This document shows, in pieces, positions 14,901 through 29,925 of a DNA stretch of 64,000 nt. Numbering within the stretch: position 1 is the first letter of the stretch; every line of letters begins with the position of its first letter. Position numbers and translations under genes: made by a program. The notes below the pieces were generated by a model. That model searched no databases, was not told the origin of the DNA, and worked only from the letters and a program-made list of their open reading frames with translations. The stretch spans positions 1,984,001 through 2,048,000 of the forward strand of contig JBBODD010000001.1 of the NCBI GenBank assembly GCA_038002745.1. Direction: 5' to 3'. The DNA comes from Bacillus sp. FSL H8-0547. GTDB taxonomy: Bacteria; Bacillota; Bacilli; Bacillales; Bacillaceae.

Positions 14901-15182
14901 AACACTTATATCAATCCGAACAAGCCATCTGAAGATTCCGTTGACAACATGGAAGTAGCCCGGGCCTCTAAAGAGGAAAAAGAAACACAAATTCAAAACT
15001 TAAAAGCGTTCCAGGAACGCAATGCCGCTCAAGCTGATGCAGCCATCGAAAGACTGAAGCAGGCAGCCATCCACAATCAGAACATCTTTGCTGAACTGAT
15101 GGAGACGGTCAACTACGCAAGTCTCGGCCAGATCACGCAGGCACTATACGAAGTAGGCGGACAGTACCGCAGGAATATGTAG
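11919..15182 (+). CDS. icmF: Fused isobutyryl-CoA mutase IcmF
   Basis: Adenosylcobalamin-dependent isomerisation of isobutyryl-CoA and n-butyryl-CoA. In its 1087 residues the cobalamin-binding domain comes first (DGHDAS at residues 23-28, with H25 the likely cobalt ligand, then SSYQGG and YGGGGG). A MeaB-like G domain follows ([10 protein letters not shown]-loop, ETSGIGQGD, and NKFERKG in place of NKxD). The large TIM-barrel mutase domain fills the rest (from about residue 560, including [10 protein letters not shown]). This order is the IcmF type, distinct from two-subunit Icm or methylmalonyl-CoA mutase. The built-in G domain acts as a cofactor chaperone. It is the last gene of the catabolic operon, before a terminator. 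Confidence 0.95.
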
Positions 15183-15190
15183 GAAGAGGG

Positions 15191-15225
15191 AGCTCCCGGT
15201 TTTAGAGGGGGCTTCTTTCTTTTTG
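15191..15225 (+). terminator. Intrinsic terminator of icmF operon
   Basis: AGCTCCC (15191-15197) pairs with GGGGGCT (15207-15213), including one G-T pair, and is followed by TCTTTCTTTTTG. Confidence 0.75.
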
Positions 15226-15250
15226 TGAAAGGAGATCACTGATTTTGTAG

Positions 15251-16292
15251 AATGGTGCCATCAAGAAGAGAAATTCCTGGGTTGATGGTACTTACCGGGA
15301 AGAATAGAACCATCAAAAGGAAGAATGTTCTGGTTGATGTTACTCATCCGGGAGAACAGTGCTATCAAAAGGAGGAATAATCAGGGTGATGGTACTTATC
15401 AGGAAGAACAGTGCCACCAAAAGAAAGAATATTCAGGTTGATGGCACTAATCTGGTAGAACAGTGCTATCAAAAGGAGGAATCCGGAGGTTGATGGCACT
15501 TATCGGGAAGAATAGAACCATCAAAAAGAAGAATCCGGAGGTTGATGGCACTTATCAGGAAGAATAGAACCATCAAAAAGAAGAATCCTCAGGTTGATGG
15601 CACTTATCAGGAAGAATAGAACCATCAAAAAGAAGAATCCTCAGGTTGATGGCACTTATCCGGGAGAACAGTACCATCAAAAGGAGGAATCCTCAGGTTG
15701 AAGGCACTTATCAGGAAGAACAGTACCACCAAAAGAAAGAATCCTCAGGTTGAAGGCACTTATCAGGAAGAACAGTACCATCAAAAGGAAGAGTCAGCTG
15801 GTTGAAGGCACTTATCATGAAGAACAGTACCATCAAAAGGAAGAGTCAGCTGGTTGAAGGCACTTATCAGGAAGAACAGTACCACCAAAAGAAAGAATCT
15901 TCAGGTTGAAGGACTTATCAGGAAAAATAGAACCACCAAAAAGAAGAGTCCTCAGGTTGAAGGCACTTATCAGGAAGAACAGTACCACCAAAAGAAAGAG
16001 TCAGCTGGTTGAAGGCACTTATCAGGAAGAACAGTACCATCAAAAGGAAGAGTCAGCTGGTTGAAGGCACTTATCAGGAAGAACAGTACCATCAAAAGGA
16101 AGAGTCCTCAGGTTGAAGGCACTTATCAGGAAGAACAGTACCATCAAAAGGAAGAGTCAGCTGGTTGAAGGCACTTATCAGGAAGAACAGGACCACCAAA
16201 AGAAAGAACCTTCAGGTTGAAGGCACTTACCGGGAAAAACAGAACCACCAAAAAGAAGAATCCACAGGTTGAAGGCACTAACCCGGAAAGAA
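15251..16292. repeat. Tandem array, about 20 copies of a 52-bp hairpin unit
   Basis: Units start at GGTTGA and recur at 15280, 15332, 15384, 15436 and so on to 16267. The spacing is exactly 52 bp except for one 51-bp step caused by a lost base near 15913. A typical early unit carries TTGATGGTACT and AGTACCATCAA, an 11-base inverted repeat with a loop of about 13. Copies 1-8 mostly read TTGATGG and copies 9-20 read TTGAAGG. No open frame runs through it and 52 is not divisible by 3, so it is not coding. It fills the gap between the icmF terminator and the ATP-grasp gene. Confidence 0.96.
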
Positions 16293-16347
16293 ATTTTTTC
16301 CCAATGACTTATCTTCCCGTTTTATGTAAAATGAAAGAAATAGAAAA

Positions 16348-16365
16348 CTTCGGACTGTTCCGAAG
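16348..16365 (+). promoter_or_regulatory. Hairpin just before the ATP-grasp ribosome site
   Basis: CTTCGGA (16348-16354) pairs with TCCGAAG (16359-16365) around a 4-base loop. It directly abuts the ribosome-binding site GAGAGGGG. It may stabilise or gate translation of the following gene; there is no T tract. Confidence 0.45.
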
Positions 16366-16384
16366 AGAGGGGTTTTTCTGAAAA

Positions 16385-17401
16385 ATGAGTACATATAAAA
16401 TCTGGTTCAACCGCTGGTTCTCGGTTGCCTATCACTATATTGATATGATTCGGAACAATGAAGACGGGATTAAGTTTGAAGTGTACGGGACGCATCCGGA
16501 TGCTGATCATGTCATGCTTGCCAACTGCGATTATTCAGAGGTTGAACCGAAGTGCGAAACGGATGAGGAATATGTTCAGTACTGTCTTGATTTTTGCCGA
16601 AAACATGGCATTGAGCTGTTCATCCCAAGGTATAAAATGCTGCCAATTGCAAAAGCGCTGGACAAGTTTGAAGAGCTCGGTGTAAAGGTATTAGTCAATA
16701 GAGATGCTGAGCTGCTAGAGGCTATAGACAATAAAGATGATTTTTACGAGATTTGCAGAGAGAAGGGCTTATTTGATATCCCTTCCTTTTATACAGCAAA
16801 AACACCTGAAGAATTCAAAGATACATATGAAAAATTGAAAAACGAAGGACTCGGTGTCTGCTATAAGCCTGTGGTCGGAGAGGGAGGATACGGGTTCAGA
16901 ATCATCGATGACAATGTTGATCCCCTTAAAGAAGTGATGGCGCCGAGCTACCGGATTCCGTTTCAGAGAGTCTACGACGGGCTGAAAGCTGCCGGAGAGT
17001 TCCCGGAGCTTATGGTCATGGAATTTCTCGAAGGAGAAGAATACAGCATTGACTGCCTGGCCTTTAATGGCGAACTCATCGCAGCTGTGCCGCGCAGGAA
17101 AGGCGGAGGAAGAATCCGGATTCTTGAAAACAACAAAGAATTAATTGAACTTGCAGAGGCGTTCACCAAGGAATTTAAGCTGGACTACATTTTTAATATC
17201 CAGGTCAAATATAATCAGGGGCTTCCAAAGCTGCTTGAGATTAACCCGCGGATGTCGGGCGGCCTGTATTTCAGCTGCCTCTCGGGAGTGAACTTCCCGT
17301 ATCTGGCGGTCAAGCTGCTGCTTGGCGAAAAAGTAGAAAAGCAGGAGGCAAAGCTTGATATAAAGGCAACCTTCCTGGAAAAGGAAATTATTTTATCTTA
17401 G
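16385..17401 (+). CDS. ATP-grasp ligase of the Ter biosynthetic cluster
   Basis: The 338-residue protein has the ATP-grasp layout: an N-terminal pre-ATP domain, a lysine strand CYKPVVGEGGYGFRII (about residues 160-175), an acidic EFLEGEEYSID and the metal-binding LLEINPRMSGGLYFS near the C-terminus. These enzymes join a carboxylate to an amine or similar nucleophile through an acyl-phosphate. It resembles carbamoyl-phosphate-synthase-like ATP-grasp proteins encoded beside terD and telA genes. The ATG at 16385 follows GAGAGGGG by 12 bases. Its substrate is unknown. A SigW-type promoter begins 7 bases after its stop, so it may be transcribed separately from the TerD genes. Confidence 0.85.
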   Translation: MSTYKIWFNRWFSVAYHYIDMIRNNEDGIKFEVYGTHPDADHVMLANCDYSEVEPKCETDEEYVQYCLDFCRKHGIELFIPRYKMLPIAKALDKFEELGVKVLVNRDAELLEAIDNKDDFYEICREKGLFDIPSFYTAKTPEEFKDTYEKLKNEGLGVCYKPVVGEGGYGFRIIDDNVDPLKEVMAPSYRIPFQRVYDGLKAAGEFPELMVMEFLEGEEYSIDCLAFNGELIAAVPRRKGGGRIRILENNKELIELAEAFTKEFKLDYIFNIQVKYNQGLPKLLEINPRMSGGLYFSCLSGVNFPYLAVKLLLGEKVEKQEAKLDIKATFLEKEIILS

Positions 17402-17407
17402 CTTCTA

Positions 17408-17433
17408 TGAAACTTTTCTTCTTTTAAAACGTA
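17408..17433 (+). promoter_or_regulatory. ECF sigma (SigW/SigM-type) promoter for the Ter genes
   Basis: TGAAAC (17408-17413), 16-base spacer, CGTA (17430-17433). This equals the B. subtilis SigW consensus (TGAAAC-N16-CGTA) and is close to SigM and SigX sites. In B. subtilis the related yceC operon is known to be under extracytoplasmic-function sigma factors and SigB, so the site fits the gene content. Confidence 0.8.
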
Positions 17434-17503
17434 TGAAATAGTGCGGGCCAGTAAAAGGTTTTTAGTTGAAATTTGCTCAGATATTGGTAGTATAAGACTT
17501 GTG

Positions 17504-17519
17504 GTCACGTTATCGTGAC
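17504..17519. promoter_or_regulatory. Perfect palindrome upstream of terD, possible operator
   Basis: GTCACG and CGTGAC flank TTAT, 85 bases before the first TerD start codon. A possible sigma-A promoter overlaps it on the left (TTGAAA at 17468-17473 region, then TAGTAT). The arm sequence is unlike the other palindromes in the window. It could be an operator or a short mRNA hairpin; no regulator is assigned. Confidence 0.4.
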
Positions 17520-17603
17520 AATAGACCGAATAATACATAAAGAAGTATGGCTCAGGTCTCTGTTTGCAAGTTTCCCCATTACCCAGAAAGGGAGAGTGAA
17601 GAA

Positions 17604-18209
17604 ATGGCAATTACACTGCAAAAGGGTCAGAAGATTGATCTGACAAAAGGAAATGCCGGTCTTAAAAACATTATGGTAGGACTAGGATGGGATCCTGTCC
17701 AGCAAAAAAGCGGCGGTCTTCTCGGCGGACTCTTCGGAGGCGGCGGAAGCAACGTTGACTGCGATGCTTCAGTATTAATGCTTGATGAAAATGACCGTCT
17801 GCTTGATAAAAAGAGCGTCATTTATTTTGGCAACCTTACAAGCAAATGCGGTTCAGTTAAACATACCGGAGACAACCTGACAGGAGACGGCGATGGAGAC
17901 GATGAGCAGGTGCTGATCGATCTGAGCAAGGTTCCTGCAAATGTTCATAAGCTTGTGTTTGTTGTTAACATCTATCAGGCTGTCCAAAGAAAACAGCATT
18001 TCGGCATGATTCAAAATGCCTTTATCCGTGTAGTGGATTCTGCAAGCCGCACGGAACTTGTTCAGTTTAACCTGAGCGATGATTACTCCGGTCTAACATC
18101 CCTTATCCCGGGCGAAATCTACCGCCACGGAGGCGAGTGGAAGTTTTCCGCAGTCGGTTCAGGTACAAAAGACGCTTCCATTACAGAAATTGCAAACCGT
18201 CACGCATAA
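17604..18209 (+). CDS. TerD-family stress protein (YceC-like)
   Basis: TerD-domain protein of the tellurite and chemical stress response, likely a cytoplasmic calcium-binding protein associating with membrane stress complexes. Its 201 residues begin [17 protein letters not shown], the typical TerD N-terminus, and carry the acidic signatures DCDASVLMLDEND and HTGDNLTGDGDGDDEQ that bind calcium in characterised members. A glycine-rich insert (GGLLGGLFGGGGSN) follows the first strand. The ATG at 17604 follows GGGAG. It is 73 bases before a second TerD gene. The exact biochemical role of TerD is not known. Confidence 0.93.
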   Translation: MAITLQKGQKIDLTKGNAGLKNIMVGLGWDPVQQKSGGLLGGLFGGGGSNVDCDASVLMLDENDRLLDKKSVIYFGNLTSKCGSVKHTGDNLTGDGDGDDEQVLIDLSKVPANVHKLVFVVNIYQAVQRKQHFGMIQNAFIRVVDSASRTELVQFNLSDDYSGLTSLIPGEIYRHGGEWKFSAVGSGTKDASITEIANRHA

Positions 18210-18282
18210 TTTCTTTCCGGAATCCTGACACGGGATTCTGAAAGACATAAAAAATAACAGGATAAAAGGAGTCGAATTCAAA

Positions 18283-18861
18283 ATGGCAATCAGCTTATCT
18301 AAAGGTCAGAAAATCGATTTAACAAAAACAAACCCTGGTTTAACAAAAGTATTGGTCGGTCTTGGCTGGGATACAAACAAGTATGACGGCGGAAAAGACT
18401 TTGACCTTGACACATCTGTTTTCTTATTGGATGAAAACGGCAAAGCAGCAAGCGAAGCAGATTTCATTTTCTACAACAACCTTGTTGGCGGAAACGGATC
18501 AGTTGAGCATACTGGCGACAACCGTACGGGCGAAGGTTCAGGTGACGATGAAGTCATCAAAGTTAACCTTTCACAAGTTCCTGCTTCTATCAGCAAAATT
18601 GCGTTCACAATCACGATTCATGATGCAGAATCACGCAGCCAGAACTTTGGACAAGTTTCCAATGCTTACGTGCGCATCTTGAACGAAGACAGCAATTCAG
18701 AGCTTATCCGCTATGACTTAGGGGAAGACTTCTCTATTGAAACTGCAGTCGTTGTAGGCGAACTTTACCGTCACGGCGCAGAGTGGAAATTTAATGCAAT
18801 CGGAAGCGGCTACCAGGGCGGTCTTGGTTCACTTGTAAAAGACTACGGCTTGGACGTTTAA
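18283..18861 (+). CDS. TerD-family stress protein (YceD/YceE-like)
   Basis: Second TerD-domain protein, 192 residues starting [17 protein letters not shown]. It has the conserved [15 protein letters not shown] and [15 protein letters not shown] acidic loops and the C-terminal [19 protein letters not shown] block. It lacks the glycine-rich insert of its neighbour and is closer to B. subtilis YceD/YceE. A strong terminator lies 27 bases after the stop, so the two TerD genes can form a transcript of their own. Confidence 0.94.
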
Positions 18862-18888
18862 TTGCAGAAGTGTAAATAAACATGAAGG

Positions 18889-18921
18889 GGTGCGTTGTTT
18901 TTATAAACAACGCGCCTTTTT
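18889..18921 (+). terminator. Intrinsic terminator after the TerD genes
   Basis: GGTGCGTTGTTT (18889-18900) pairs with AAACAACGCGCC (18905-18916) with one G-T pair around TTAT, followed by five Ts. Confidence 0.9.
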
Positions 18922-18947
18922 CAAAGCTGAAAGAACAGCAAGGCGGT

Positions 18948-18973
18948 GAATCGCCCGGCCATCCGGGCGATTC
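18948..18973 (+). terminator. Second hairpin downstream of the TerD terminator
   Basis: GAATCGCCCGG (18948-18958) pairs perfectly with CCGGGCGATTC (18963-18973) around 4 bases; TGCTTTTC follows. It may back up the first terminator or be the edge of the adjacent dispersed repeat. Confidence 0.5.
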
Positions 18974-18984
18974 TGCTTTTCGCA

Positions 18985-19104
18985 GTGTCCAGCTCCACCT
19001 TCCAGCTCCTCCGCCAGAACAAAATCCCCCAAAAAGTCTAAAAGCGGACTTTTCGGGTGATTTCTTTTCTGTCTGTCGGAGCTAAACGGAAGGTTCCGCA
19101 TTTC
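18985..19104 (+). repeat. Dispersed palindromic element, copy A
   Basis: Runs from GTGTCCAGC to TTCCGCATTTC. The central hairpin pairs AAAAAGTC with GACTTTT, flanked by CCAGAACAAAATC and GATTTCTTTTCTGTC. It is the same family as the elements at 33054, 35949, 36072, 45909 and 53906. Confidence 0.85.
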
Positions 19105-19161
19105 AGTGTGGAAATTTACCACTTAGTACATCACGAACGGTCCCTGAATGGAGGAACAATC

Positions 19162-20379
19162 TTGAAACATTTTCAATATTTAAGCAAGGAAAAACGCAGC
19201 GAGATTTTTTTATATGAGCCGATTCACTTTTCAAAGGAGACCGAGCGGGAAATGCTTGCCTATGCTCTGGGCGCAACTCTCTATATGCCCGGAAGCAGGA
19301 CAGCCATTGCAGGAGATGTACTATCTGGTAAATTTCTTAATGGAAAGCACGAAGGACTGACTTCGATGGTCATTTGTCTTGAAGATTCCATCGGCGATAC
19401 AGAAGTAGAGGCAGCAGAAGCAAATACTGTGAGCCAGATTCAAACCATTTCAGACAGTGTGCTGAAAGGACAGTTTGACCAGAGAAATCTTCCGCTTATT
19501 TTTATCAGAATCAGAAGCCGGGAACAGATGCAGCGGGTGTCTCGGAAGCTTAAGCATCACATTCAGCTGATCAGCGGATTTGTTTTTCCGAAATTCACAT
19601 CTGAAAACGGGAGAGGGTATTACACAGCGCTGCAGGAAATTGCATCCGATTATTCTGTTACGCTTTACGGAATGCCGATTCTTGAAACAAAAGAGATTAT
19701 TTATAAAGAAACACGCTTGAACGAACTGCTTGGCATCAAAGCGATTCTGGATGATTTTTATGAGTATGTGCTGAATGTAAGGCTTGGAGGCACAGACTTA
19801 TCCGGTCTGTTTGGAATCAGGAGAAGCAGGGATACGACCATCTATGATATTTCAGTCATCCGGGACTGCATTACGGACATTATCAATGTTTTCGGCCGAT
19901 GTGAAAAAGAGTACGTCATCTCCGGTCCGGTATGGGAGTATTTTGGGGGCGGACAGCGAATTTTGAAGCCGCAGATCAGACAAACTCCTTTCCAGCAGGC
20001 ATATGGCCATGAAGGGCTTGAATTCAGAGCGAACCTCATTGACCGTTATGACGACGGACTTATTCATGAGATCGTTCTGGATAATACGAACGGGCTTGTA
20101 GGGAAAACGATCATACATCCTCTTCATATTAAAATCGTCAATGCGCTGAACGCGGTCACAAGGGAGGAATATTTGGACGCCTCCTCCATCCTTGATCAGG
20201 CGCAGTCCTACAACGGCGTGATCCGAAGCGAATTTTCAAATAAAATGAACGAAATTAAACCCCATTACAATTGGGCGCGGAAAATCATCTTGAAATCTAA
20301 ACTATACGGGGTGTTCCATGAGCAGCAATCATTTATCGACCTTATCAGCGAAACCGCAAACGAACAGCTATACATTTGA
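19162..20379 (+). CDS. CitE/HpcH-like C-C bond lyase of the Ter cluster
   Basis: A TIM-barrel protein of the HpcH/HpaI and citrate-lyase beta type, matching what I recall as the C-C_Bond_Lyase family of Ter operons. Features include MVICLEDSIGDTEVEAAEAN (acidic metal site), LIFIRIRSREQM, GFVFPKF, LYGMPILETKEI and GKTIIHPLHI. The start is TTG at 19162: GGAGG at 19150-19154 lies 7 bases before it and the product is 405 residues (KHFQYLSKEKRSEIF...). Upstream codons in frame fall inside the dispersed repeat. Its 3' end overlaps the next gene by 62 bases, so the genes are cotranslated. The substrate is unknown. Confidence 0.85.
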   Translation: MKHFQYLSKEKRSEIFLYEPIHFSKETEREMLAYALGATLYMPGSRTAIAGDVLSGKFLNGKHEGLTSMVICLEDSIGDTEVEAAEANTVSQIQTISDSVLKGQFDQRNLPLIFIRIRSREQMQRVSRKLKHHIQLISGFVFPKFTSENGRGYYTALQEIASDYSVTLYGMPILETKEIIYKETRLNELLGIKAILDDFYEYVLNVRLGGTDLSGLFGIRRSRDTTIYDISVIRDCITDIINVFGRCEKEYVISGPVWEYFGGGQRILKPQIRQTPFQQAYGHEGLEFRANLIDRYDDGLIHEIVLDNTNGLVGKTIIHPLHIKIVNALNAVTREEYLDASSILDQAQSYNGVIRSEFSNKMNEIKPHYNWARKIILKSKLYGVFHEQQSFIDLISETANEQLYI

Positions 20380-21691
20380 CCTGCTGGGTCAGCTTTCGGT
20401 AGACATCGAATTGACCGGAAATCCTTATCTTCTACCGCTGGACAGGCTGTTCCAGATGGCGGCGCGCATTAACAAAAAGCGCTCGTTTCTTTTTGTCAGC
20501 ACCGTTCTCGGCAAGCATATTCCTGTTGATCCTTCGCTTGCTCTTCTTACTGGTCAGGCGCTTGCAGCCAGATACATGGAAGTCGTTGAGGCAAAAACGC
20601 ATCCGGAGCGGGATCAGATTCTTGCAGGATTGATGGGCGGACAGGCAAAGAAAAGCGAATACCGCCATGCACTAGCTGAACCGGCATTATTTATCGGGTT
20701 TGCAGAAACAGCGACAGCTCTTGGGCACGCGGTGTTTGAGAACTTCAGAAATGCGGCTTTTTTCCATACGACAAGAGAACAGGTGTCTGAAATGGATTCT
20801 ATTATTAACTTTGAAGAGGAGCATTCTCACGCCACTTCACACCGGTGCTATGTTGATGAAAAGCTTTTTGATAACACGAGGCCGATCGTTCTTGTTGATG
20901 ATGAAGTCACAACAGGGAAAACGGCGCTGAATATCATTGAATCCATTCAGGAAAAATTCCCGCGCAGCGAATATACGGTCGTATCCATCCTCGACTGGCG
21001 TTCAGAGGAAGATCAAAAGAGATTCAGAGATACAGAGAAACGGCTGGGCATTACCATTCATGAGGTTTCTCTTGTAACGGGACTGATTACAGCAAATGGA
21101 GATCCGGTTGCAGAAAGCAAACCCCAAACCCGTTCTCTGTCTTCACTCCATGCAGAAATGGAGGAAATCGTGATTTCTCCGGAAGAAGGCGATCTTACGT
21201 CATGTGCGTCAGAACAGCTGTCTTCCCCATATGTGAAGCATACGGGAAGGTTCGGTCTGACTGATGCAGAACAATTGGAGGCAGACATTTATTGCCTGAA
21301 GGCGGCAGCAAGGCTGCGCGAAGCCAGAAAAGGAAAAAGAACCCTTTGTCTCGGTACAGGGGAATTTATGTACATTCCTATGAAAACAGCCTCCTACATG
21401 GGGGACGGCATCTACTATCAGTCTACGACAAGAAGCCCGATTCATCCTGTTAACCGCGTGAATTACGCTGTGAACAGCGCGTTCCCGTTTTCAAATCCAG
21501 AAGACGGGGAAACAGCAAACTTTTTCTACAATGTCACAGAGGGCCAGTATGATGAAGTTTTTGTCTTCTTCGAACGTTCTGTTCCTGAGGAGAGACTGCA
21601 GCCGATGCTTGATCAGCTGAAAACTGTTTTCCCGGTGATTCATTTTGTATATTTCAGTACAAACCAAAAAGGAAGTGCATCTGATGAGTAA
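20318..21691 (+). CDS. Phosphoribosyltransferase with C-terminal TRSP domain
   Basis: The 457 residues contain a type I PRTase domain with the PRPP-binding motif PIVLVDDEVTTGKTALNI (about residues 190-207) and a C-terminal domain with the signature QSTTRSPIHP, the TRSP motif that names it. Such proteins are known from Ter-linked gene clusters, where they are predicted to act on a base or ribose-phosphate in making a nucleotide-like compound. It overlaps the upstream lyase by 62 bases and the downstream gene by 8 (ATGAGTAA), which indicates translational coupling. No experiment on the reaction is known to me. Confidence 0.88.
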   Translation: MSSNHLSTLSAKPQTNSYTFDLLGQLSVDIELTGNPYLLPLDRLFQMAARINKKRSFLFVSTVLGKHIPVDPSLALLTGQALAARYMEVVEAKTHPERDQILAGLMGGQAKKSEYRHALAEPALFIGFAETATALGHAVFENFRNAAFFHTTREQVSEMDSIINFEEEHSHATSHRCYVDEKLFDNTRPIVLVDDEVTTGKTALNIIESIQEKFPRSEYTVVSILDWRSEEDQKRFRDTEKRLGITIHEVSLVTGLITANGDPVAESKPQTRSLSSLHAEMEEIVISPEEGDLTSCASEQLSSPYVKHTGRFGLTDAEQLEADIYCLKAAARLREARKGKRTLCLGTGEFMYIPMKTASYMGDGIYYQSTTRSPIHPVNRVNYAVNSAFPFSNPEDGETANFFYNVTEGQYDEVFVFFERSVPEERLQPMLDQLKTVFPVIHFVYFSTNQKGSASDE

Positions 21692-22802
21692 GGTGGAGCA
21701 GCAATTGCCGAAGCCGGCAGCAATGGGAAGTTATTCAGAAAAGGACGTTGTTTTCCTGCTGAAGGACTTGAGCCAAATTAGTCTTGAAAAATCAACACTC
21801 GAACGGGAGCAGGCTGTTCAGAGCGGAACACATTATTCTGAGATGCTTCCAATTGAATATAAGCCGACCGATGAATATTTGCAGCTTTTTCATCACTCAT
21901 TAGACATGTATAAACAAAAGCTTGCAGCTGCTGTTGGAACGGTGTCAGAGCAGATTTTAAAAACAAAGGGCAAGAGCATCGTGCTCGTTTCGCTTGCCCG
22001 CGCAGGCACTCCGGTAGGAATTCTGATGAAGCGCTACTTGCAGGAGGTGCATCAGATCGATGTTCCTCATTACAGTGTCTCCATTGTGAGAGGACGCGGC
22101 ATTGATGCCAACGCCATGAATTATATCGCCCATAATCATCCGGATGAAAGCGTGCAGTTTGTGGATGGCTGGACAGGAAAAGGCGCCATCACAAGAGAGC
22201 TTAGAGAAGCAATGGAAGTTTTCAACAGCAAACACGGCCTTGCCATTGATGACTCGCTCGCGGTACTTGCAGATCCCGGTTATTGCACGGATATTTATGG
22301 AACCAGAGAAGATTTTCTGATTCCGAGCGCCTGCCTGAACTCAACTGTATCAGGCCTTGTCAGCAGAACTGTCCTGAACGATGCCTTCATCGGGCCGGAT
22401 GACTTCCACGGTGCCAAATATTACGAAGAACTGCTGCCGGAAGACGTGTCCAATCATTTCATTGACGTAGTAGTCTCTGAGTTTCCAAACGTTAAAGAGG
22501 AGATCTCAAAGCAGGTTTCGCTGCTTGATAAAGAGGACCGGACACCGACATGGAAAGGGATTGAGGATATTAAGCAAATTCAGGACGAGTTTGGCATTGA
22601 AAACATCCACCATGTGAAGCCGGGAGTGGGAGAGACGACGCGTGTACTGCTCAGAAGAGTGCCATGGAAGATCCTTGTTAAGGATTTAGGCAATAAAGAC
22701 CTCGAGCATATCTTCCTGCTGGCAAAAGAACGGAACGTCCCTGTCATTGAATACAAGAATATGTCTTACTCATGCTGCGGGATTATCAAGCCCTTAAACT
22801 AG
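21684..22802 (+). CDS. StiP family protein with C-terminal Pelota-like domain
   Basis: The 372-residue protein matches the family annotated as 'cysteine protease StiP' and, in Pfam as I recall it, PRTase_1 plus PELOTA_1. The N-terminal part has LARAGTPVGILMKRYL, SIVRGRGID and FVDGWTGKGAITREL, which look like a PRTase loop rather than a protease site. The C-terminal 100 residues (ETTRVLLRRVPWKILVKD to YSCCGIIKPLN) resemble L7Ae/Pelota RNA-binding folds. The ATG at 21684 overlaps the previous stop (ATGAGTAA). The function is unproven. Confidence 0.82.
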   Translation: MSKVEQQLPKPAAMGSYSEKDVVFLLKDLSQISLEKSTLEREQAVQSGTHYSEMLPIEYKPTDEYLQLFHHSLDMYKQKLAAAVGTVSEQILKTKGKSIVLVSLARAGTPVGILMKRYLQEVHQIDVPHYSVSIVRGRGIDANAMNYIAHNHPDESVQFVDGWTGKGAITRELREAMEVFNSKHGLAIDDSLAVLADPGYCTDIYGTREDFLIPSACLNSTVSGLVSRTVLNDAFIGPDDFHGAKYYEELLPEDVSNHFIDVVVSEFPNVKEEISKQVSLLDKEDRTPTWKGIEDIKQIQDEFGIENIHHVKPGVGETTRVLLRRVPWKILVKDLGNKDLEHIFLLAKERNVPVIEYKNMSYSCCGIIKPLN

Positions 22803-22813
22803 GAGGTACTGCT

Positions 22814-23629
22814 GTGATTTTTGCAAGTGATCTGGATCAGACGCTCATTTATTCGAGAAGATCGTTCCGTGAGCCGGTTGGAGAAGAGGATATTCAATTG
22901 ATTGAAACTCTCGACGGCCAGGAAATTTCGTTCATGACGAAAAAAGCGATTTCCATGCTGAAGGAAATAGCCGGACAGATGACGTTTGTTCCTGTAACAA
23001 CCAGAACCCCGTCCCAATACGGACGGATCTCCATCTTTCAGCAGGAAATCCTTCCGCGCTACGCTGTAACGAGCAACGGCGGACATGTATTCAAAGAGGG
23101 GAAGCTTGACGAGGAGTGGAAACAGCATCTTGAAGCACGCATGAAAGATGAGTGTACAAGTTTGGAGGATGTCTCCCTTAAATTTCAGGAGATTGCTTCA
23201 GATGACTGGGTGCTGAAGCAGAAAAACGCCGAGAATCTCTTTTTATACAACATTATTGAACGCGGAAATATTCCGGAGGCTCGCCTGCAGGAGTTTATCC
23301 TCTGGGCGGACCGTCACGGCTGGAAGCATTCACTGCAGGGAAGAAAGCTGTATTTTGTGCCGAAACCGATTAATAAATGGGACGCCGTTGCCTATGTGAA
23401 AGAAGCTGCCGGTGCAAAAACCGTGATGACTGCGGGCGACTCCCTGCTTGATTTGTGCATGCTCGAAGAAGCCGATCTTGCCTTTTCACCGTTGCACGGC
23501 GAGCTTGGCGAGTCAGGCGCAAGGCTGTCTGGAACCATACAGCGAACGTCGAAAAATGGAATCTTCGCTTCAGAGGAAATTCTGGAAAATGTCCTGGCGA
23601 AAATCAAGCCTGTCCCTGCTGAACAGTAA
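22814..23629 (+). CDS. HAD-superfamily hydrolase of the Ter cluster
   Basis: A phosphatase-like HAD protein of 271 residues. Motif I is DLDQT near the N-terminus, motif II is TTRTP, the lysine lies in the KPINKW region and motif III is AGDSLLDLCMLEEAD. The GTG start at 22814 is chosen because AGGAGG at 22801-22806, overlapping the previous stop codon, lies 7 bases before it; an ATG at 22772 would lie inside the upstream gene. It resembles sucrose-phosphate-phosphatase-like HADs with a cap domain. In this operon it may remove a phosphate from the metabolite produced. Confidence 0.88.
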   Translation: MIFASDLDQTLIYSRRSFREPVGEEDIQLIETLDGQEISFMTKKAISMLKEIAGQMTFVPVTTRTPSQYGRISIFQQEILPRYAVTSNGGHVFKEGKLDEEWKQHLEARMKDECTSLEDVSLKFQEIASDDWVLKQKNAENLFLYNIIERGNIPEARLQEFILWADRHGWKHSLQGRKLYFVPKPINKWDAVAYVKEAAGAKTVMTAGDSLLDLCMLEEADLAFSPLHGELGESGARLSGTIQRTSKNGIFASEEILENVLAKIKPVPAEQ

Positions 23630-23733
23630 ATAGAAATATTTACCTGTATAAGGTGGTACAATAGGAGCGGGGTGTTCTCAGGGTACCTATGGCTGCACGG
23701 CTGATTTTCTCAGTTCTTATTGGAGTGAACGTC

Positions 23734-23949
23734 TTGGCAACAGCAGAAAAAACAAAAACCAATCTATTGGATAAAAACATTATGAGTTCCGCTCAGGCCT
23801 GCAAAGAATGGGGGATTGACGATTCTGCTCTCAGAAAAAGGGTCAATCAGTTTCCGCCGGGCACCATCCGGAAGTTCGGAAAAACATGGGTGGTTACGAG
23901 TGAAGGAATGTGCCACGTCTTTGGCGAAAAAAGACGAAACGGTCAGTAA
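23734..23949 (+). CDS. Small helix-turn-helix-like protein in Ter cluster
   Basis: A 71-residue basic protein. SSAQACKEWGIDDSALRKRV looks like a helix-turn-helix, followed by a beta-like RKFGKTWVVTSEGM segment. TTG at 23734 is the favoured start: GGAG at 23722-23725 lies 8 bases before it, and the alternative ATG at 23689 would add a poor hydrophobic leader. It lies between the HAD gene and yceG on the same strand. It may be a DNA- or RNA-binding regulator of the cluster; this is not established. Confidence 0.68.
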   Translation: MATAEKTKTNLLDKNIMSSAQACKEWGIDDSALRKRVNQFPPGTIRKFGKTWVVTSEGMCHVFGEKRRNGQ

Positions 23950-23981
23950 ACATGGAGATATTTTCAGAGGAGGGAAGAGAG

Positions 23982-25583
23982 ATGATAAGAACATATAAGC
24001 CTGCGCTTGCAGAACATCTGGATACAGACTGGCAGACTCTTCTTTTTATGCCGCTGCCTGAGCGTCCGGATTATGTGAACACTCCCTCTGAAGTGAAAAT
24101 TCCGCAAGTCGCCATCCGTCTGCTTGGAACACCATTAACAGACGACGAATACTATCAAATGCTTTTTGACCTTGTTCATCACGAGGAACTCGGTGTGCAT
24201 TTTCTAAGTGAATCTTTAGATAAAAACATCCCGCAGGAAAAATTTCAGGCGATACAGAACCTGCTGATTCTGCATAAAAACGAAAAGCTCTCCGTGAACC
24301 GGTTTGTTGCTTTTATGGACAGAGACCGCCTGCTTCCGGTTCTTTCCGATCCGGAGTTAAACCGCCACCTGCGGACTTGTGTCATTCATATGCTTTCGCG
24401 CTTCTTTCCTGACAAAGCGAACGACAGTGCCGATTTCCGGCGCATCATTGTTGATTTGATCAAATGGACCTGGAACCACCTGCATCCTGAGCTGCGAAAA
24501 ACAGACGGCCTCCGGCCGCCTGCGTTTTTCTGGTACGGAAATGCAACGAAAAGCGAACAGTTCTTCCTTCATTTCCTGATCCGGTTCGGATGCGATGTCA
24601 TCATTGCCCATCCGGAGGGGATAGACATCCTGAAGGAGGAAGATCCGGAAGAAACGGTCAGCAAAATCGTCCGTTTTCCGGGGACTCACGAACTGACAGC
24701 GTTCCCAAAGGTAAGGCCTGAGCGCACATCAACTGTGGCATACAAAGCTTCAAAACAAATTGACCAGGTTCTTCATTCAGATGAATCCATGCTCTATAAG
24801 CCATGGCAATTCAAAAATTATTCCCCAAATGCACGGACGCTGAAAACAACGTATGATGAACTTTTTATTCTTATAAAAGAAAGAGCATTTCTGCGTCCGG
24901 ACTTTGAAGTCCGGGATAACATGGTTCATATACCCGCTATTTTTTCAAAAATCTTCGGGGTGACAAAAAACAGACGCTCGTACTGGGGCAAAATTCAGGA
25001 CCTTGCTGACTATGAACATGCGGCTGTCGTAAAGTACTTTCCGTTTACCTGGGAGGCTAAAGGCAATCCTCATTTTCATTATCAGAACGCTCTGAACGAA
25101 AGTCAGGTGCTGCAGGCTGATAAAATGATGGGAAGCCACTGGTGGAAGTATTCAAACCTTCCGACCGGCCTTCAAAAAGGGCTGGCTGATGCGATTTCGA
25201 GGTATTGTGCTGATCCAAAACTTAAAAGGCTGGAACAGGAAAGTCCTTATGATCTGCAGCTTTACCTGTTCAATCAGGCGCTTAATATTCCGGAAACCCT
25301 TATTAAATTGATGCAGAATTTTGATTACTCCCAGCATGTGCCCCGGCTCATTCTTTATAATAATGAAAACAACGGCTACATGACGCGCTCAGACGCTGCG
25401 ATGCTTATGCTGATGAATGAATTCGGCCTGGATATCGTGATCTGTAATCCTCCCGGCCATAATGACATTGAAAATTTTGTCGATGAAAAGCATTACGACA
25501 GCCACTGGCTAGAGGAAATGAGCTTTAATGAAGTCTACCAGGAGCCGTCGAAATTCAAAAAATTCATCCGGAAAATCTTTTAA
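23982..25583 (+). CDS. yceG: YceG-like component of the Ter biosynthetic module
   Basis: The 533 residues match B. subtilis YceG in length and neighbourhood (beside yceH/telA). No catalytic motif is obvious. Two segments repeat the same pattern: FFWYGNATKSEQFFLHFLIR then FGCDVIIAHPEG (about residues 180-213), and LILYNNENNGYMTRSDAAML then FGLDIVICNPPG (about 454-490). This suggests two related domains. The ATG at 23982 follows AGAGGAGG by 8 bases. Family annotation calls it a putative component of a biosynthetic module; the chemistry is unknown. Confidence 0.85.
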   Translation: MIRTYKPALAEHLDTDWQTLLFMPLPERPDYVNTPSEVKIPQVAIRLLGTPLTDDEYYQMLFDLVHHEELGVHFLSESLDKNIPQEKFQAIQNLLILHKNEKLSVNRFVAFMDRDRLLPVLSDPELNRHLRTCVIHMLSRFFPDKANDSADFRRIIVDLIKWTWNHLHPELRKTDGLRPPAFFWYGNATKSEQFFLHFLIRFGCDVIIAHPEGIDILKEEDPEETVSKIVRFPGTHELTAFPKVRPERTSTVAYKASKQIDQVLHSDESMLYKPWQFKNYSPNARTLKTTYDELFILIKERAFLRPDFEVRDNMVHIPAIFSKIFGVTKNRRSYWGKIQDLADYEHAAVVKYFPFTWEAKGNPHFHYQNALNESQVLQADKMMGSHWWKYSNLPTGLQKGLADAISRYCADPKLKRLEQESPYDLQLYLFNQALNIPETLIKLMQNFDYSQHVPRLILYNNENNGYMTRSDAAMLMLMNEFGLDIVICNPPGHNDIENFVDEKHYDSHWLEEMSFNEVYQEPSKFKKFIRKIF

Positions 25584-25656
25584 GCCGCATCATTTATGCG
25601 CGCAGAATTGCCTGTGTGAAAGGGCATCCAAACTATATTGAAGGAGGATTTCGCGT

Positions 25657-26742
25657 ATGTCTCAAGTACCTGGACTCAGCAAAACGGATCAGATGGAAGA
25701 GGTTCTCGGACAAGGACCGAACAATATGAAGCTTCAGCTTCAAAAAGAGCCTGAGGTTCAAAAGCTTGCAGAGAGCATTGACCACAAGAACCAGGTGGCA
25801 ATCCTTGAATACGGAAAAGCACCTGCTGATGAAATTTCAGCTTTTTCAGGAAAAATCCTGAACACCATGAAGTCAAGCAGCATGGAAGAATCAAGCGCCC
25901 TCCTGAAACATCTCGGGAGAATCATGGACCGCTTTGACCCGAAAGACTTTGCCGAGCAAAAAGGAATAAAGAAATTCTTCAGCCGCGGCCAGAAGCTGGT
26001 AGAGAAAATCATGTCGAAGTATCAGACAATGGGCGGCGAAATTGATAAAGTCTACCTTGAAATTGTGAAATACGAGGATGAAATGAAGCGTTCAACAAAT
26101 ACGCTTGAGCAGCTTTACGAACAGAACTTCAACTATTATATGGAGCTTGAAAAATATATTGTGGCAGGAGATATGAAAGCAGCTGAACTAAAGCAGCAGC
26201 TGCCGGCATTAGAAGCAAAAGCTGCGGAGGGAAACCAGCTTGCTCAAATGGAGCTTGATACGATGCGGAACTCAATTGAGGTGCTTGAGCAGCGGGTATA
26301 CGATCTCGAACTTGCCAAACAGGTAGCCTACCAGTCCGCACCGCAAATCCGTCTTCTGCAAAGAGGGAACACAAAGCTGATTGGAAAAATCAATTCTGCG
26401 TTTGTCACAACAATTCCTATCTTCAAAACCGGCCTGATCAACGCAATAGCAGCTAAAAGACAGAAGCTCGTCGCAGATTCAATGAATGAGCTTGAAAAAC
26501 GCACAAATGAAATGCTTGTCCGAAACGCACAGAATATATCAAAACAGAGTGTGGACATTGCAAGACTTGCAGGAAGCCCCGGCATTAAAATGGAAACAAT
26601 CGAAGAAACATGGAGCATCATCCTAAAAGGCATGCACGAAACAAAAGCCATCGAAGACGAAAACAAACAGCTTCGTGAACAAGGAAGAGTGCGCCTTGAA
26701 GAACTGCAGAACAACTTTAAGCAGCTGAATAATGGCCGCTGA
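25657..26742 (+). CDS. Toxic anion resistance protein TelA (YceH-like)
   Basis: TelA-family protein linked to tellurite and other stress resistance, 361 residues, close to B. subtilis YceH. It is largely alpha-helical and coiled-coil (LEQLYEQNFNYYMELEKYIV, AKAAEGNQLAQMELDTM) with the conserved TIPIFKTGLINAIAAKRQKL block and the C-terminal TIEETWSIILKGMHETKAIE. AAGGAGGA precedes the ATG. It closes the Ter operon, and a strong terminator lies 18 bases after the stop. The molecular activity of TelA is not known. Confidence 0.93.
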   Translation: MSQVPGLSKTDQMEEVLGQGPNNMKLQLQKEPEVQKLAESIDHKNQVAILEYGKAPADEISAFSGKILNTMKSSSMEESSALLKHLGRIMDRFDPKDFAEQKGIKKFFSRGQKLVEKIMSKYQTMGGEIDKVYLEIVKYEDEMKRSTNTLEQLYEQNFNYYMELEKYIVAGDMKAAELKQQLPALEAKAAEGNQLAQMELDTMRNSIEVLEQRVYDLELAKQVAYQSAPQIRLLQRGNTKLIGKINSAFVTTIPIFKTGLINAIAAKRQKLVADSMNELEKRTNEMLVRNAQNISKQSVDIARLAGSPGIKMETIEETWSIILKGMHETKAIEDENKQLREQGRVRLEELQNNFKQLNNGR

Positions 26743-26760
26743 TAGTTAATAGCAAATAAT

Positions 26761-26796
26761 AATCCGGACTGAGGTTTAAACAGTCCGGATTTTTTC
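26761..26796 (+). terminator. Intrinsic terminator of the Ter operon
   Basis: AATCCGGACTG (26761-26771) pairs perfectly with CAGTCCGGATT (26781-26791), followed by five Ts. Confidence 0.93.
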
Positions 26797-26906
26797 TATG
26801 GGAATCCTTTTATATTGACCAGTGTACTCTTTGTGAATCTAATAGAACGTTCAAGAGGGGGAGAGATTTAAAATCTGGAAGTAGTGCAGCCTCTTTTGTC
26901 GGTTGC

Positions 26907-27062
26907 GGAACCTCAATAGTGGCGTCACTCCCTCGAGTGCTGCCACTTTTATTGGTAATGGAACCTCAAAAGTGGCGTCATTCCCCCGAGTGCAGCCACT
27001 TTTACCAATGGTGGAACCTCAATTAGTGGCTACACTCCCACCGAATGATCACTTTTACTTGT
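26907..27062. repeat. Tandem array, three copies of a 53-bp hairpin unit
   Basis: GGAACCTCAA recurs at 26907, 26960 and 27013. Each unit holds an inverted repeat: AGTGGC...GCCACT, with an inner CACTC...GAGTG in the first. The third copy is degenerate. It is not coding. It shares the 53-bp period but not the sequence of the array at 1365. Confidence 0.85.
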
Positions 27063-27083
27063 TTCCTAAATGTAAATTTAAAA

Positions 27084-27201
27084 CTCCAGTGAACTGCAGC
27101 GGAAGGCACTTGACTCCTGCGGGATGAAGAGGGCACGGGAGACCCCGCAAGCGAAGCTGAGGAGGCTCCCGGCACTCCCCGCGGAAAGCAAGTGACTGGA
27201 G
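27084..27201. repeat. 118-bp element with nested inverted repeats
   Basis: CTCCAGT (27084-27090) and ACTGGAG (27195-27201) are the outer inverted repeats; CACTTG (27107-27112) and CAAGTG (27189-27194) are the inner ones. The middle is GC-rich (GGGAGACCCCG, GGAGGCTCCCGG). I recall similar elements dispersed in Bacillaceae genomes, but could not search. No open frame of note crosses it. Confidence 0.75.
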
Positions 27202-27486
27202 CGAAAGAGAACGGGTACAAATGAAATCAAAGTTCAACAATCTATGGGGAAAGACATTATAAAAACATGAGTCTGCGCAGTTTTGACAAAAATTATTCCG
27301 ATTTATTAGAAGGAAGAAGATTAAGGTAGCATAAAGTGTTAGAATTTGTTTATAATGAATGGTATGACTTGAATACATAGGATTCGGACAGTACTAGCAA
27401 TCTCACTTCCGGATTTCTTAAAAGATGAGAATAGAACCTGCTCTTATCTACAAATAGATGAACGACTAGAAAGGGAGTGCCTCACT

Positions 27487-28035
27487 TTGAGTATTTCACA
27501 ATATTCTAAGGACCAGCTTAAAGAATTGTCAATGGTTGAAGTAGCCTACGACCTGATGACTGAAAAGAAACAGCCGTACGTTTTCATGGACCTGGTAAAG
27601 GAAATCAGCCAGATTATCGGTCTTACGAAAAGCCAGGTGGAAGATAAAATTTCGCAATTCTACACAGATCTTAACATCGACGGCCGTTATATTTGTGTTG
27701 GAGAAAACACTTGGGGACTGCGCAGCTGGTACCCGTACGAGCAAATCGAAGAAGAGGTTGTGCCTGTTGCAAAACCTAAGAAGAAAAAGGCGAAAAAAGC
27801 GGTTGATGAGCTTGAGCTTGAAGACTTCGATGAAGTGGATGAAGAAGAACTAGAATACGATGATATTGAAGAGTATGAAGATGATACGGACGACGATCTG
27901 GACGACGATGATCTCGAAGATGATGCAGAAGAAATCGACGAAGTCATTGAAGACGAAGATTTTGATCTTGAAGAGGAAGAGCTTGACGAAGACCTTGATG
28001 AAGATCTTGAAGAAGACGAAGAAGAAGATAAATAA
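27487..28035 (+). CDS. rpoE: RNA polymerase delta subunit
   Basis: Delta subunit of Gram-positive RNA polymerase, which helps core recycling and promoter selectivity. The 182 residues have a folded N-terminal domain (SISQYSKDQLKELSMVEVAY to NTWGLRSWYP) and a long, almost purely Asp/Glu C-terminal tail from about residue 105. The TTG start at 27487 follows AAGGGAG. A possible promoter, TTGACA at 27283-27288 with a weak TAGAAG, lies upstream after the 118-bp element. The pyrG promoter begins 6 bases after the stop codon. Confidence 0.95.
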   Translation: MSISQYSKDQLKELSMVEVAYDLMTEKKQPYVFMDLVKEISQIIGLTKSQVEDKISQFYTDLNIDGRYICVGENTWGLRSWYPYEQIEEEVVPVAKPKKKKAKKAVDELELEDFDEVDEEELEYDDIEEYEDDTDDDLDDDDLEDDAEEIDEVIEDEDFDLEEEELDEDLDEDLEEDEEEDK

Positions 28036-28040
28036 TCGTC

Positions 28041-28082
28041 TTGACTTTAGAGGTCCAACTAGGTAGAATCTTATTTGGGCTC
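28041..28082 (+). promoter_or_regulatory. pyrG promoter with GGGCTC initiation region
   Basis: TTGACT (28041-28046), 17-base spacer, TAGAAT (28064-28069), then seven bases and GGGCTC (28077-28082). In B. subtilis pyrG transcription starts with GGGCTC, and at low CTP the polymerase slips and adds extra G residues. The match here is exact at the start site. Confidence 0.9.
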
Positions 28083-28116
28083 TTTAAAAGCTATACCAAT
28101 GGTTTATATATACCAT

Positions 28117-28154
28117 GCTCCCTTTCGCAACGCGCAAGGGAGCTTTCTTTTTTT
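28117..28154 (+). terminator. pyrG leader attenuator terminator
   Basis: GCTCCCTT (28117-28124) pairs with AAGGGAGC (28136-28143), followed by TTTCTTTTTTT. The 5' arm reads GCTCCCTTTC, the same sequence that in B. subtilis pairs with slippage-made poly(G) to prevent termination when CTP is low. It also serves rpoE read-through transcripts. Confidence 0.9.
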
Positions 28155-28239
28155 AGCGCAGTTAAGCCTTCAGGCTGACATAGGCGCTTTTCCTTTTTTT
28201 AGGCATGAAAGACCCCCTGACAACACTTATAAAAGATAA

Positions 28240-29925
<1,686 letters not shown>

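What the first reader, a model, noticed from the sequence alone, without database searches (positions are those of the whole stretch)
16385..26742. Ter/Tel island that encodes a full putative biosynthetic set
Two TerD proteins and TelA sit with an ATP-grasp ligase, a CitE-like C-C lyase, a PRTase-TRSP protein, a StiP/Pelota-like protein, a HAD phosphatase, YceG and a small HTH-like protein. Overlaps (62 and 8 bases) and stop codons shared with ribosome sites show tight coupling. The enzyme mix suggests assembly of a nucleotide-like metabolite tied to stress; such clusters were described computationally by the Aravind group, but the product is unknown to me. B. subtilis has only yceC-yceH here, so this version is larger and lies at a different chromosomal place.
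Basis: partly seen in the sequence, partly recalled or inferred. Interest (0 to 1): 0.85.

Follow-up and report, generated by a model that had tools for sequence, protein, structure and literature searches.

The report
Ter stress operon with two PRTases
This is a known kind of bacterial stress operon that pairs tellurite-resistance-type proteins with enzymes for an unknown ribose-containing product; one of its proteins, named a protease in databases, looks like a second phosphoribosyltransferase, and the operon appears to be switched on by a cell-envelope stress sigma factor.

Summary
All ten proteins fall in the named families, and the 62- and 8-base overlaps are real. The system is not new: an E. 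coli IncHI2 ter island has the same five enzymes, 76 of 80 named Firmicutes/Streptomyces loci hold the four-enzyme core, and a nucleoside-like product was predicted in 2012. Here ATP-grasp sits at the 5' end, with two TerD genes and no TerC.

Added here: (1) 'StiP' is predicted with high confidence to have a phosphoribosyltransferase fold, and no cysteine is invariant. (2) It is fused to the first PRTase in 22 of 77 loci. (3) A SigW-type promoter, TGAAAC-N16/17-CGTA, precedes the TerD genes in 48 of 97 loci (48 of 80 without Streptomyces; at most 2 of 80 for 1,000 permuted patterns). In this genome the motif also precedes sigW, a TerD-TerF pair and a TerC. (4) A strong internal terminator and separate promoters argue against one tightly coupled ten-gene unit.

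The product remains unknown; a PRPP-dependent ribosyl compound is the best guess.

The parts
16304..16332 (+). promoter-like site (ATGACT-17-TAAAAT) ahead of the ATP-grasp gene; TAAAAT is conserved in 7 of 7 same-genus genomes (window included)
16348..16365 (+). short 5'-UTR hairpin CTTCGGA-CTGT-TCCGAAG; 7 pairs kept in siblings, one pair changed on both sides (A-T to C-G) and one changed on one side (G-C to G-U)
   Evidence: z -1.4 on its own, so weak alone
16385..17401 (+). ATPgrasp_Ter ligase
   Evidence: PF15632, 166 bits; only the 7 same-genus genomes of 80 family genomes have a match over 160 bits
17408..17433 (+). SigW/ECF-type promoter TGAAAC-N16-CGTA
17466..17493 (+). second promoter-like site TTGAAA-16-TAGTAT with TG before the -10; -10 block conserved in siblings
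17504..17519 (+). inverted repeat GTCACG-TTAT-CGTGAC just after the second promoter; the core TCACG-TTAT-CGTGA is conserved in 7 of 7 (one loop change); hairpin or operator
   Evidence: z -1.9
17604..18209 (+). TerD-domain protein 1
   Evidence: PF02342, 254.6 bits
18283..18861 (+). TerD-domain protein 2
   Evidence: PF02342, 286.9 bits
18884..18921 (+). internal terminator-like hairpin with T run; similar hairpin in the 6 siblings and a shorter one in L073 (energy computed for the window only)
19162..20379 (+). CitE-like C-C bond lyase (TTG start after GGAGG)
20318..21691 (+). PRTase_2 + TRSP; PRPP motif VLVDDEVTTGKT, with D194, D195, E196, T199 and G200 invariant in 37 sequences
21684..22802 (+). 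'StiP' (PF11202, listed as PRTase_1 in one paper) + PELOTA/L7Ae-like domain; predicted PRTase fold
22814..23629 (+). HAD-IIB phosphatase (DLDQT and GDSLLD motifs), GTG start
23734..23949 (+). HTH_59 protein (likely TTG start; ORF opens at 23689)
23982..25583 (+). YceG
25657..26742 (+). TelA
26761..26797 (+). terminator-like hairpin plus T run closing the island

Best explanation
This is a chromosomal Ter stress island of a Bacillaceae-like bacterium, induced at least in part by an envelope-stress ECF sigma factor, most likely SigW. Its core is a PRPP-consuming enzyme set. The CitE-like lyase (with the ATP-grasp ligase) makes or trims an acceptor. Two phosphoribosyltransferases, PRTase_2-TRSP and the misnamed StiP-PELOTA, work as a pair and attach phosphoribose to it. 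The HAD phosphatase removes the 5'-phosphate to give a ribosylated product. TerD proteins, YceG and TelA then sense the product or act with it at the membrane. Shown by computation: family membership, conserved order, fusion of the two PRTases in relatives, PRTase fold of StiP (model), SigW-type promoter. Inferred: order of reactions, acceptor, product and its receptor.
Confidence: 0.55

Rival explanations
1. StiP is a cysteine protease, as its current Pfam name says, and the operon couples a nucleotide-like signal to protein cleavage.
For: Pfam and plasmid annotations name it so; C217 and C364 are present in 52 of 52 close relatives of alignment A2.
Against: In a set of 7 picked for diversity (it includes L085, which an earlier alignment had shown to lack C217) no cysteine is invariant: C201 5 of 7, C217 4 of 7, C364 4 of 7. 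The invariant residues sit in SLxRxGxPxG and DGWTGKG, and the model is PRTase-like. A 2026 paper lists PF11202 as PRTase_1; another lists a PRTase_1 domain beside PELOTA_1, without accession.
Confidence: 0.07
2. The PRTases act on a macromolecule, not a base: PRPP-dependent ribosylation of an envelope glycan or lipid, or of an RNA held by the PELOTA/L7Ae-like domain, followed by HAD dephosphorylation, as in the gPRT + PRP pairs.
For: Best structural match 7shg is such a transferase. The two-step PRPP transferase + HAD chemistry is documented (PMC10299916 and PMC11127046, passages). The envelope-stress promoter fits. The PELOTA part weakly matches eL8/L7Ae/Snu13 (E 0.037-0.98).
Confidence: 0.2
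3. The operon is mainly a tellurite/metal resistance determinant.
For: TerD and TelA are present; in Lactococcus a locus that includes TelA was linked to tellurite tolerance through an sRNA (PMC13109727 passages).
Against: In Klebsiella, terZ-F genes are reported as sufficient for tellurite resistance (figure legend in PMC8115787). No TerC is in this island, and the promoter points to envelope stress.
Confidence: 0.08

Closest known systems
Ter-associated biosynthetic operon (Anantharaman, Iyer and Aravind 2012; paper not held, known from recall and from passages that cite it in PMC7824862, PMC8115787 and PMC5571608)
   Same: ATPgrasp_Ter, PRTase_2-TRSP, StiP/PRTase_1-PELOTA, C-C bond lyase, HAD, TerD and TelA all present
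   Different: ATP-grasp at the 5' end behind its own promoter-like site; two TerD genes; no TerC in the island; HTH_59 gene before YceG
E. coli IncHI2 plasmid ter island (pSDE-SvHI2, L192)
   Same: the same five enzymes side by side (its HAD matches S6PP just below the curated cut-off)
   Different: order ATP-grasp, PRTase, HAD, StiP, lyase; divergent TerD/TerC/TerB genes; terW, vWA, TerY-C-type, kinase and phosphatase genes beside it; nothing named YceG or TelA in the stretch annotated
B. subtilis yceCDEFGH
   Same: YceC-YceH operon reported under SigW; TerD rings in B. subtilis
   Different: no PRTase_2 or StiP hit in B. subtilis; TerC (MeeF/YceF) is in that operon
glycan phosphoribosyltransferase + HAD phosphatase pairs (gPRT/PRP; CriT/CrpP)
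   Same: PRTase fold using PRPP next to a HAD phosphatase; best structural match of StiP
   Different: StiP carries an RNA-binding-type domain; the HAD lies nearer to trehalose/sucrose phosphatases; no glycan gene in the island

Membership tests
Ter-associated biosynthetic operon | PRTase_2-TRSP beside StiP(PRTase_1)-PELOTA | tested here: met
   order conserved
Ter-associated biosynthetic operon | C-C bond lyase, HAD and Ter-type ATP-grasp with them | tested here: met
Ter-associated biosynthetic operon | linkage to TerD/TelA | tested here: met
[quoted passage not shown]
   needs metabolite analysis
Type I phosphoribosyltransferase (for StiP) | PRTase fold | tested here: met
Type I phosphoribosyltransferase (for StiP) | PRPP motif with two adjacent acidic residues | tested here: inconclusive
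   FVDGWTGKG: one aspartate and invariant T-G-K-G, second acidic residue missing in 7 of 7
Type I phosphoribosyltransferase (for PRTase_2) | PRPP motif with two adjacent acidic residues | tested here: met
   D194, D195 and E196 invariant in 37 sequences
Cysteine protease StiP | invariant catalytic cysteine | tested here: not met
   no cysteine column is invariant in 7 members picked for diversity; two are invariant in 52 close ones
Glycan phosphoribosyltransferase (gPRT) | gPRT-like structure | tested here: inconclusive
   7shg ranks first, but Z differs from PyrR by under 1
Glycan phosphoribosyltransferase (gPRT) | partner HAD of the PRP kind | tested here: inconclusive
   HAD profile hits trehalose phosphatase, 7shg not reached at E 0.01
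SigW (ECF) regulon | SigW-type promoter ahead of the operon | tested here: met
SigW (ECF) regulon | SigW ortholog in the genome with its own SigW-type promoter | tested here: met
   356 bits against a cut-off of 243.1; motif 40 bases upstream
SigW (ECF) regulon | loss of expression in a sigW mutant | not testable with these tools
   needs RNA measurements

The most novel reading that the evidence does not exclude
Ter biosynthetic islands of Bacillaceae and Paenibacillaceae are an envelope-stress response in which a two-PRTase machine plus a HAD phosphatase ribosylates a non-nucleobase acceptor (an envelope glycan/lipid, or an RNA bound by the PELOTA domain). Dispersed TerD-TerF and TerC genes would be joined to it through shared SigW promoters.
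Probability: 0.15. Interest if true: 0.75.

Novelty: new member of a known kind. Interest (0 to 1): 0.45.

Why it matters
I found no report of the product of the Ter enzyme set in the searches made, although homologs of its StiP and PRTase genes lie on about 2,500 plasmid records (2,567 and 2,554 of 72,556), most of them Enterobacterales. Recognising StiP as a second PRTase says which assay to run (PRPP turnover by the PRTase pair). The SigW motif says which stress should switch it on in a harmless Bacillaceae host. The fused version gives one protein to purify.

Tried and rejected
The tandem array upstream as a regulatory element of this operon: 52-base units at 15282-16268 are a genome-wide repeat (112 matches at up to 3 mismatches against 1 for the reversed pattern). 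Of six same-genus siblings only L070 has it here, and the arms do not co-vary cleanly, so it was set aside.

Anti-phage filing: PADLOC gave only weak PRTase_III-A hits to the PRTase (E 1.6e-4 to 9e-3), so no known defence system was assigned.

Single ten-gene operon: weakened by the internal terminator and separate promoter-like sites.

SigB-type (GTTT-N14/17-GGGTA) and CGTC/CGAC-type ECF promoters upstream of TerD: 0 of 80 each. Other spacers of TGAAAC-Nx-CGTA from 10 to 23 gave 0, except 1 at 21 and 3 at 23.

Rfam: no match over a curated cut-off in 15000-28500. The best was a PyrG leader below its cut-off.

A profile search of the PDB gave one chance-level hit (E 0.16). Foldseek E-values for StiP could not be had, so only the VIA-align list exists. 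No protease appears in its 50 rows; this absence excludes nothing by itself.

Literature: in the listings of searches I saw no experimental study of the enzyme core's product and no earlier statement of a SigW promoter on the extended operon. One search returned mostly unrelated papers and search 17 none. The library holds only open-licence papers, and the two key papers (Anantharaman 2012, Franks 2014) are not held. Only passages of papers were read, none in full.

Subsets: alignments used part of what was fetched. A2 has 52 StiP sequences (window + 51 of 80 named loci), A3 31 YceG, A4 37 PRTase_2 (window + 36 of 77 loci), A7 25 lyases. A6 has 21 HADs (window + 20 of 24 picked; L114, L147, L161 and L177 were left out for odd ORF lengths). 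Four of 101 loci had no TerD found upstream of StiP and are not in the promoter count (L123, L173, L189, L191). L128 and L129 are two contigs of one genome.
Full report
WHAT IS THERE. The window is part of one 4.23-Mb genome (C1:1984001-2048000). Between an icmF-like mutase gene (11919-15182) and the rpoE-delta and pyrG genes (from 27487 and 28255) lie ten + strand genes (flank names are my reading of the translations). Pfam assigns every one above its cut-off: ATPgrasp_Ter; TerD; TerD; C-C_Bond_Lyase; PRTase_2 + TRSP; StiP + PELOTA_1; a HAD phosphatase; HTH_59; YceG_bac; TelA. My start choices are TTG 19162 for the lyase, GTG 22814 for the HAD, TTG 23734 for the HTH protein and ATG 23982 for YceG, from ribosome sites.

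IT IS A KNOWN KIND. PRTase_2 occurs in 44 of 80 genomes of the same family and in 7 of 7 of the same genus; StiP in 17 of 151 genomes sampled from the class. In them, tblastn with the window's proteins finds lyase in 76, PRTase in 77, HAD in 80, YceG in 36, TelA in 36 and ATP-grasp in 21; 76 have lyase, PRTase, StiP and HAD together. TerC is found in 49 of 80. Some loci are cut by contig ends. The lyase-PRTase-StiP-HAD order holds in Bacillaceae, Paenibacillaceae, Clostridia and Streptomyces records. ATP-grasp sits at the 5' end in 5 and after the HAD in 16 of the 21. An E. coli IncHI2 plasmid carries the same five enzymes, and 2,567 of 72,556 plasmid records match StiP. The 2012 prediction of a nucleoside-like product is cited in papers whose passages I read. 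B. subtilis is not hit by PRTase_2 or StiP (controls). The window's version is therefore a member of a known class. It has ATP-grasp at the 5' end (within the family, matches over 160 bits occur only in its genus, 7 of 7), two TerD genes and no TerC. The outgroup L073, also between icmF and rpoE-pyrG, has a third TerD and no ATP-grasp. In the same-genus genomes the corresponding gap holds zero to three copies of an intergenic repeat (my reading). TerC exists four times elsewhere in the genome.

OTHER ENZYMES. The lyase profile matches CitE and citrate-lyase beta chains (best E 8.8e-7); the single sequence had found none. The HAD profile matches trehalose phosphatase (E 1.7e-16) and sucrose phosphatase (6.8e-6) and keeps DxDxT and GDSxxD. 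The ATP-grasp matches a carbamoyl-phosphate-synthase-like chain (2pn1, E 6.1e-7). No significant solved relative was found by sequence for PRTase_2, YceG or TelA.

CONTROL OF THE OPERON. Aligning the seven same-genus genomes showed a conserved TGAAAC-N16-CGTA ahead of TerD1. Within 400 bases upstream of the first TerD it occurs in 48 of 97 loci (window, 20 family genomes and 76 named loci; 4 of 101 had no upstream TerD), with spacer 16 in 33 and 17 in 15; a slightly looser pattern has a background of 0.0105 per 400 bases over the same loci. Without Streptomyces the count is 48 of 80. Controls on those loci: opposite strand 1 of 80, downstream of TelA 0 of 54, the best of 1,000 permuted patterns 2 of 80, other spacers from 10 to 23 at most 3. 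Loci are not independent, and at least one genome is probably in both sets (L076 and L115 share the contig length), but the set spans Bacillaceae and Paenibacillaceae records. In the window alone one match is not significant (0.20 expected); the comparative count carries the claim. In this genome the pattern occurs 50 times against 8 for its reverse. Of the 30 places fetched, 9 lie inside an ORF of 100 aa or more by a rough test and may be chance. Among the rest, and one more read inside L091, the motif lies 40 bases before sigW, 44 before a TerD followed by a TerF-type vWA gene, and 120 before a TerC. The other three TerD and three TerC places have no listed match nearby. Other ECF factors could read the motif. 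B. subtilis yceC-H is reported as SigW/B/M-dependent, and YceC/H are envelope-stress markers. The motif lies after the ATP-grasp gene, so that gene is not on this transcript. A terminator-like hairpin follows TerD2 in all seven genomes and in L073 (energy for the window only). TerD is thus probably made in excess over the enzymes (inference).

MECHANISM. Shown: families, fusions, fold model, promoter motif. Inferred: SigW induction; lyase and ATP-grasp supply an acceptor; the PRTase pair adds phosphoribose from PRPP; the HAD removes the 5'-phosphate; TerD/YceG/TelA respond. Phage ME3 keeps PRTase_2, an annotated HAD (no Pfam match), StiP, TerD and TerC, without a lyase or ATP-grasp among the annotated names of the stretch, where many genes are hypothetical. 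This hints that the two PRTases and the HAD are the minimal chemistry. PRPP transferase + HAD phosphatase pairs that ribosylate glycans are documented (passages), and PELOTA hints at RNA, so a macromolecular acceptor stays open.

VERDICT.

Noticed in passing
window 15282-16268: Tandem array of 52-base units with imperfect inverted arms between icmF and the ATP-grasp gene; 112 related matches across this genome (1 for the reversed pattern); at this place only in the window and L070 among seven same-genus genomes.
   Followed up: partly
window about 26905-27070: A second, shorter tandem run of hairpin-like units (AGTGGCGTCACTCCC...GAGTGCTGCCACTTT) just after the TelA terminator.
   Followed up: no
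window 18930-19100 and L067-L072 equivalents: TGTC(T/C)AGCT-type repeat of about 100 bases, zero to three copies between TerD2 and the lyase in seven same-genus genomes, where outgroup L073 has a third TerD gene.
   Followed up: partly
L089:8830-16463 (genome C1 about 1903829-1911462): Eleven successive ORFs (140-243 aa), several with a lipoprotein-like start and a shared (E/D)T-AF--EFTR-like motif, following a TerD-containing protein; the one tested had no Pfam hit.
   Followed up: no
L088:7942-9366 (-): TerD domain fused to a C-terminal TerB domain in one 474-aa protein.
   Followed up: no
window 28077-28154: PyrG-leader-like match (51.9 bits, below Rfam's 65) ahead of pyrG.
   Followed up: no
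window 17503-17518: Near-perfect conservation of GGTCACGTTATCGTGA just downstream of the second TerD1 promoter-like site in seven genomes; hairpin or repressor site unknown.
   Followed up: partly
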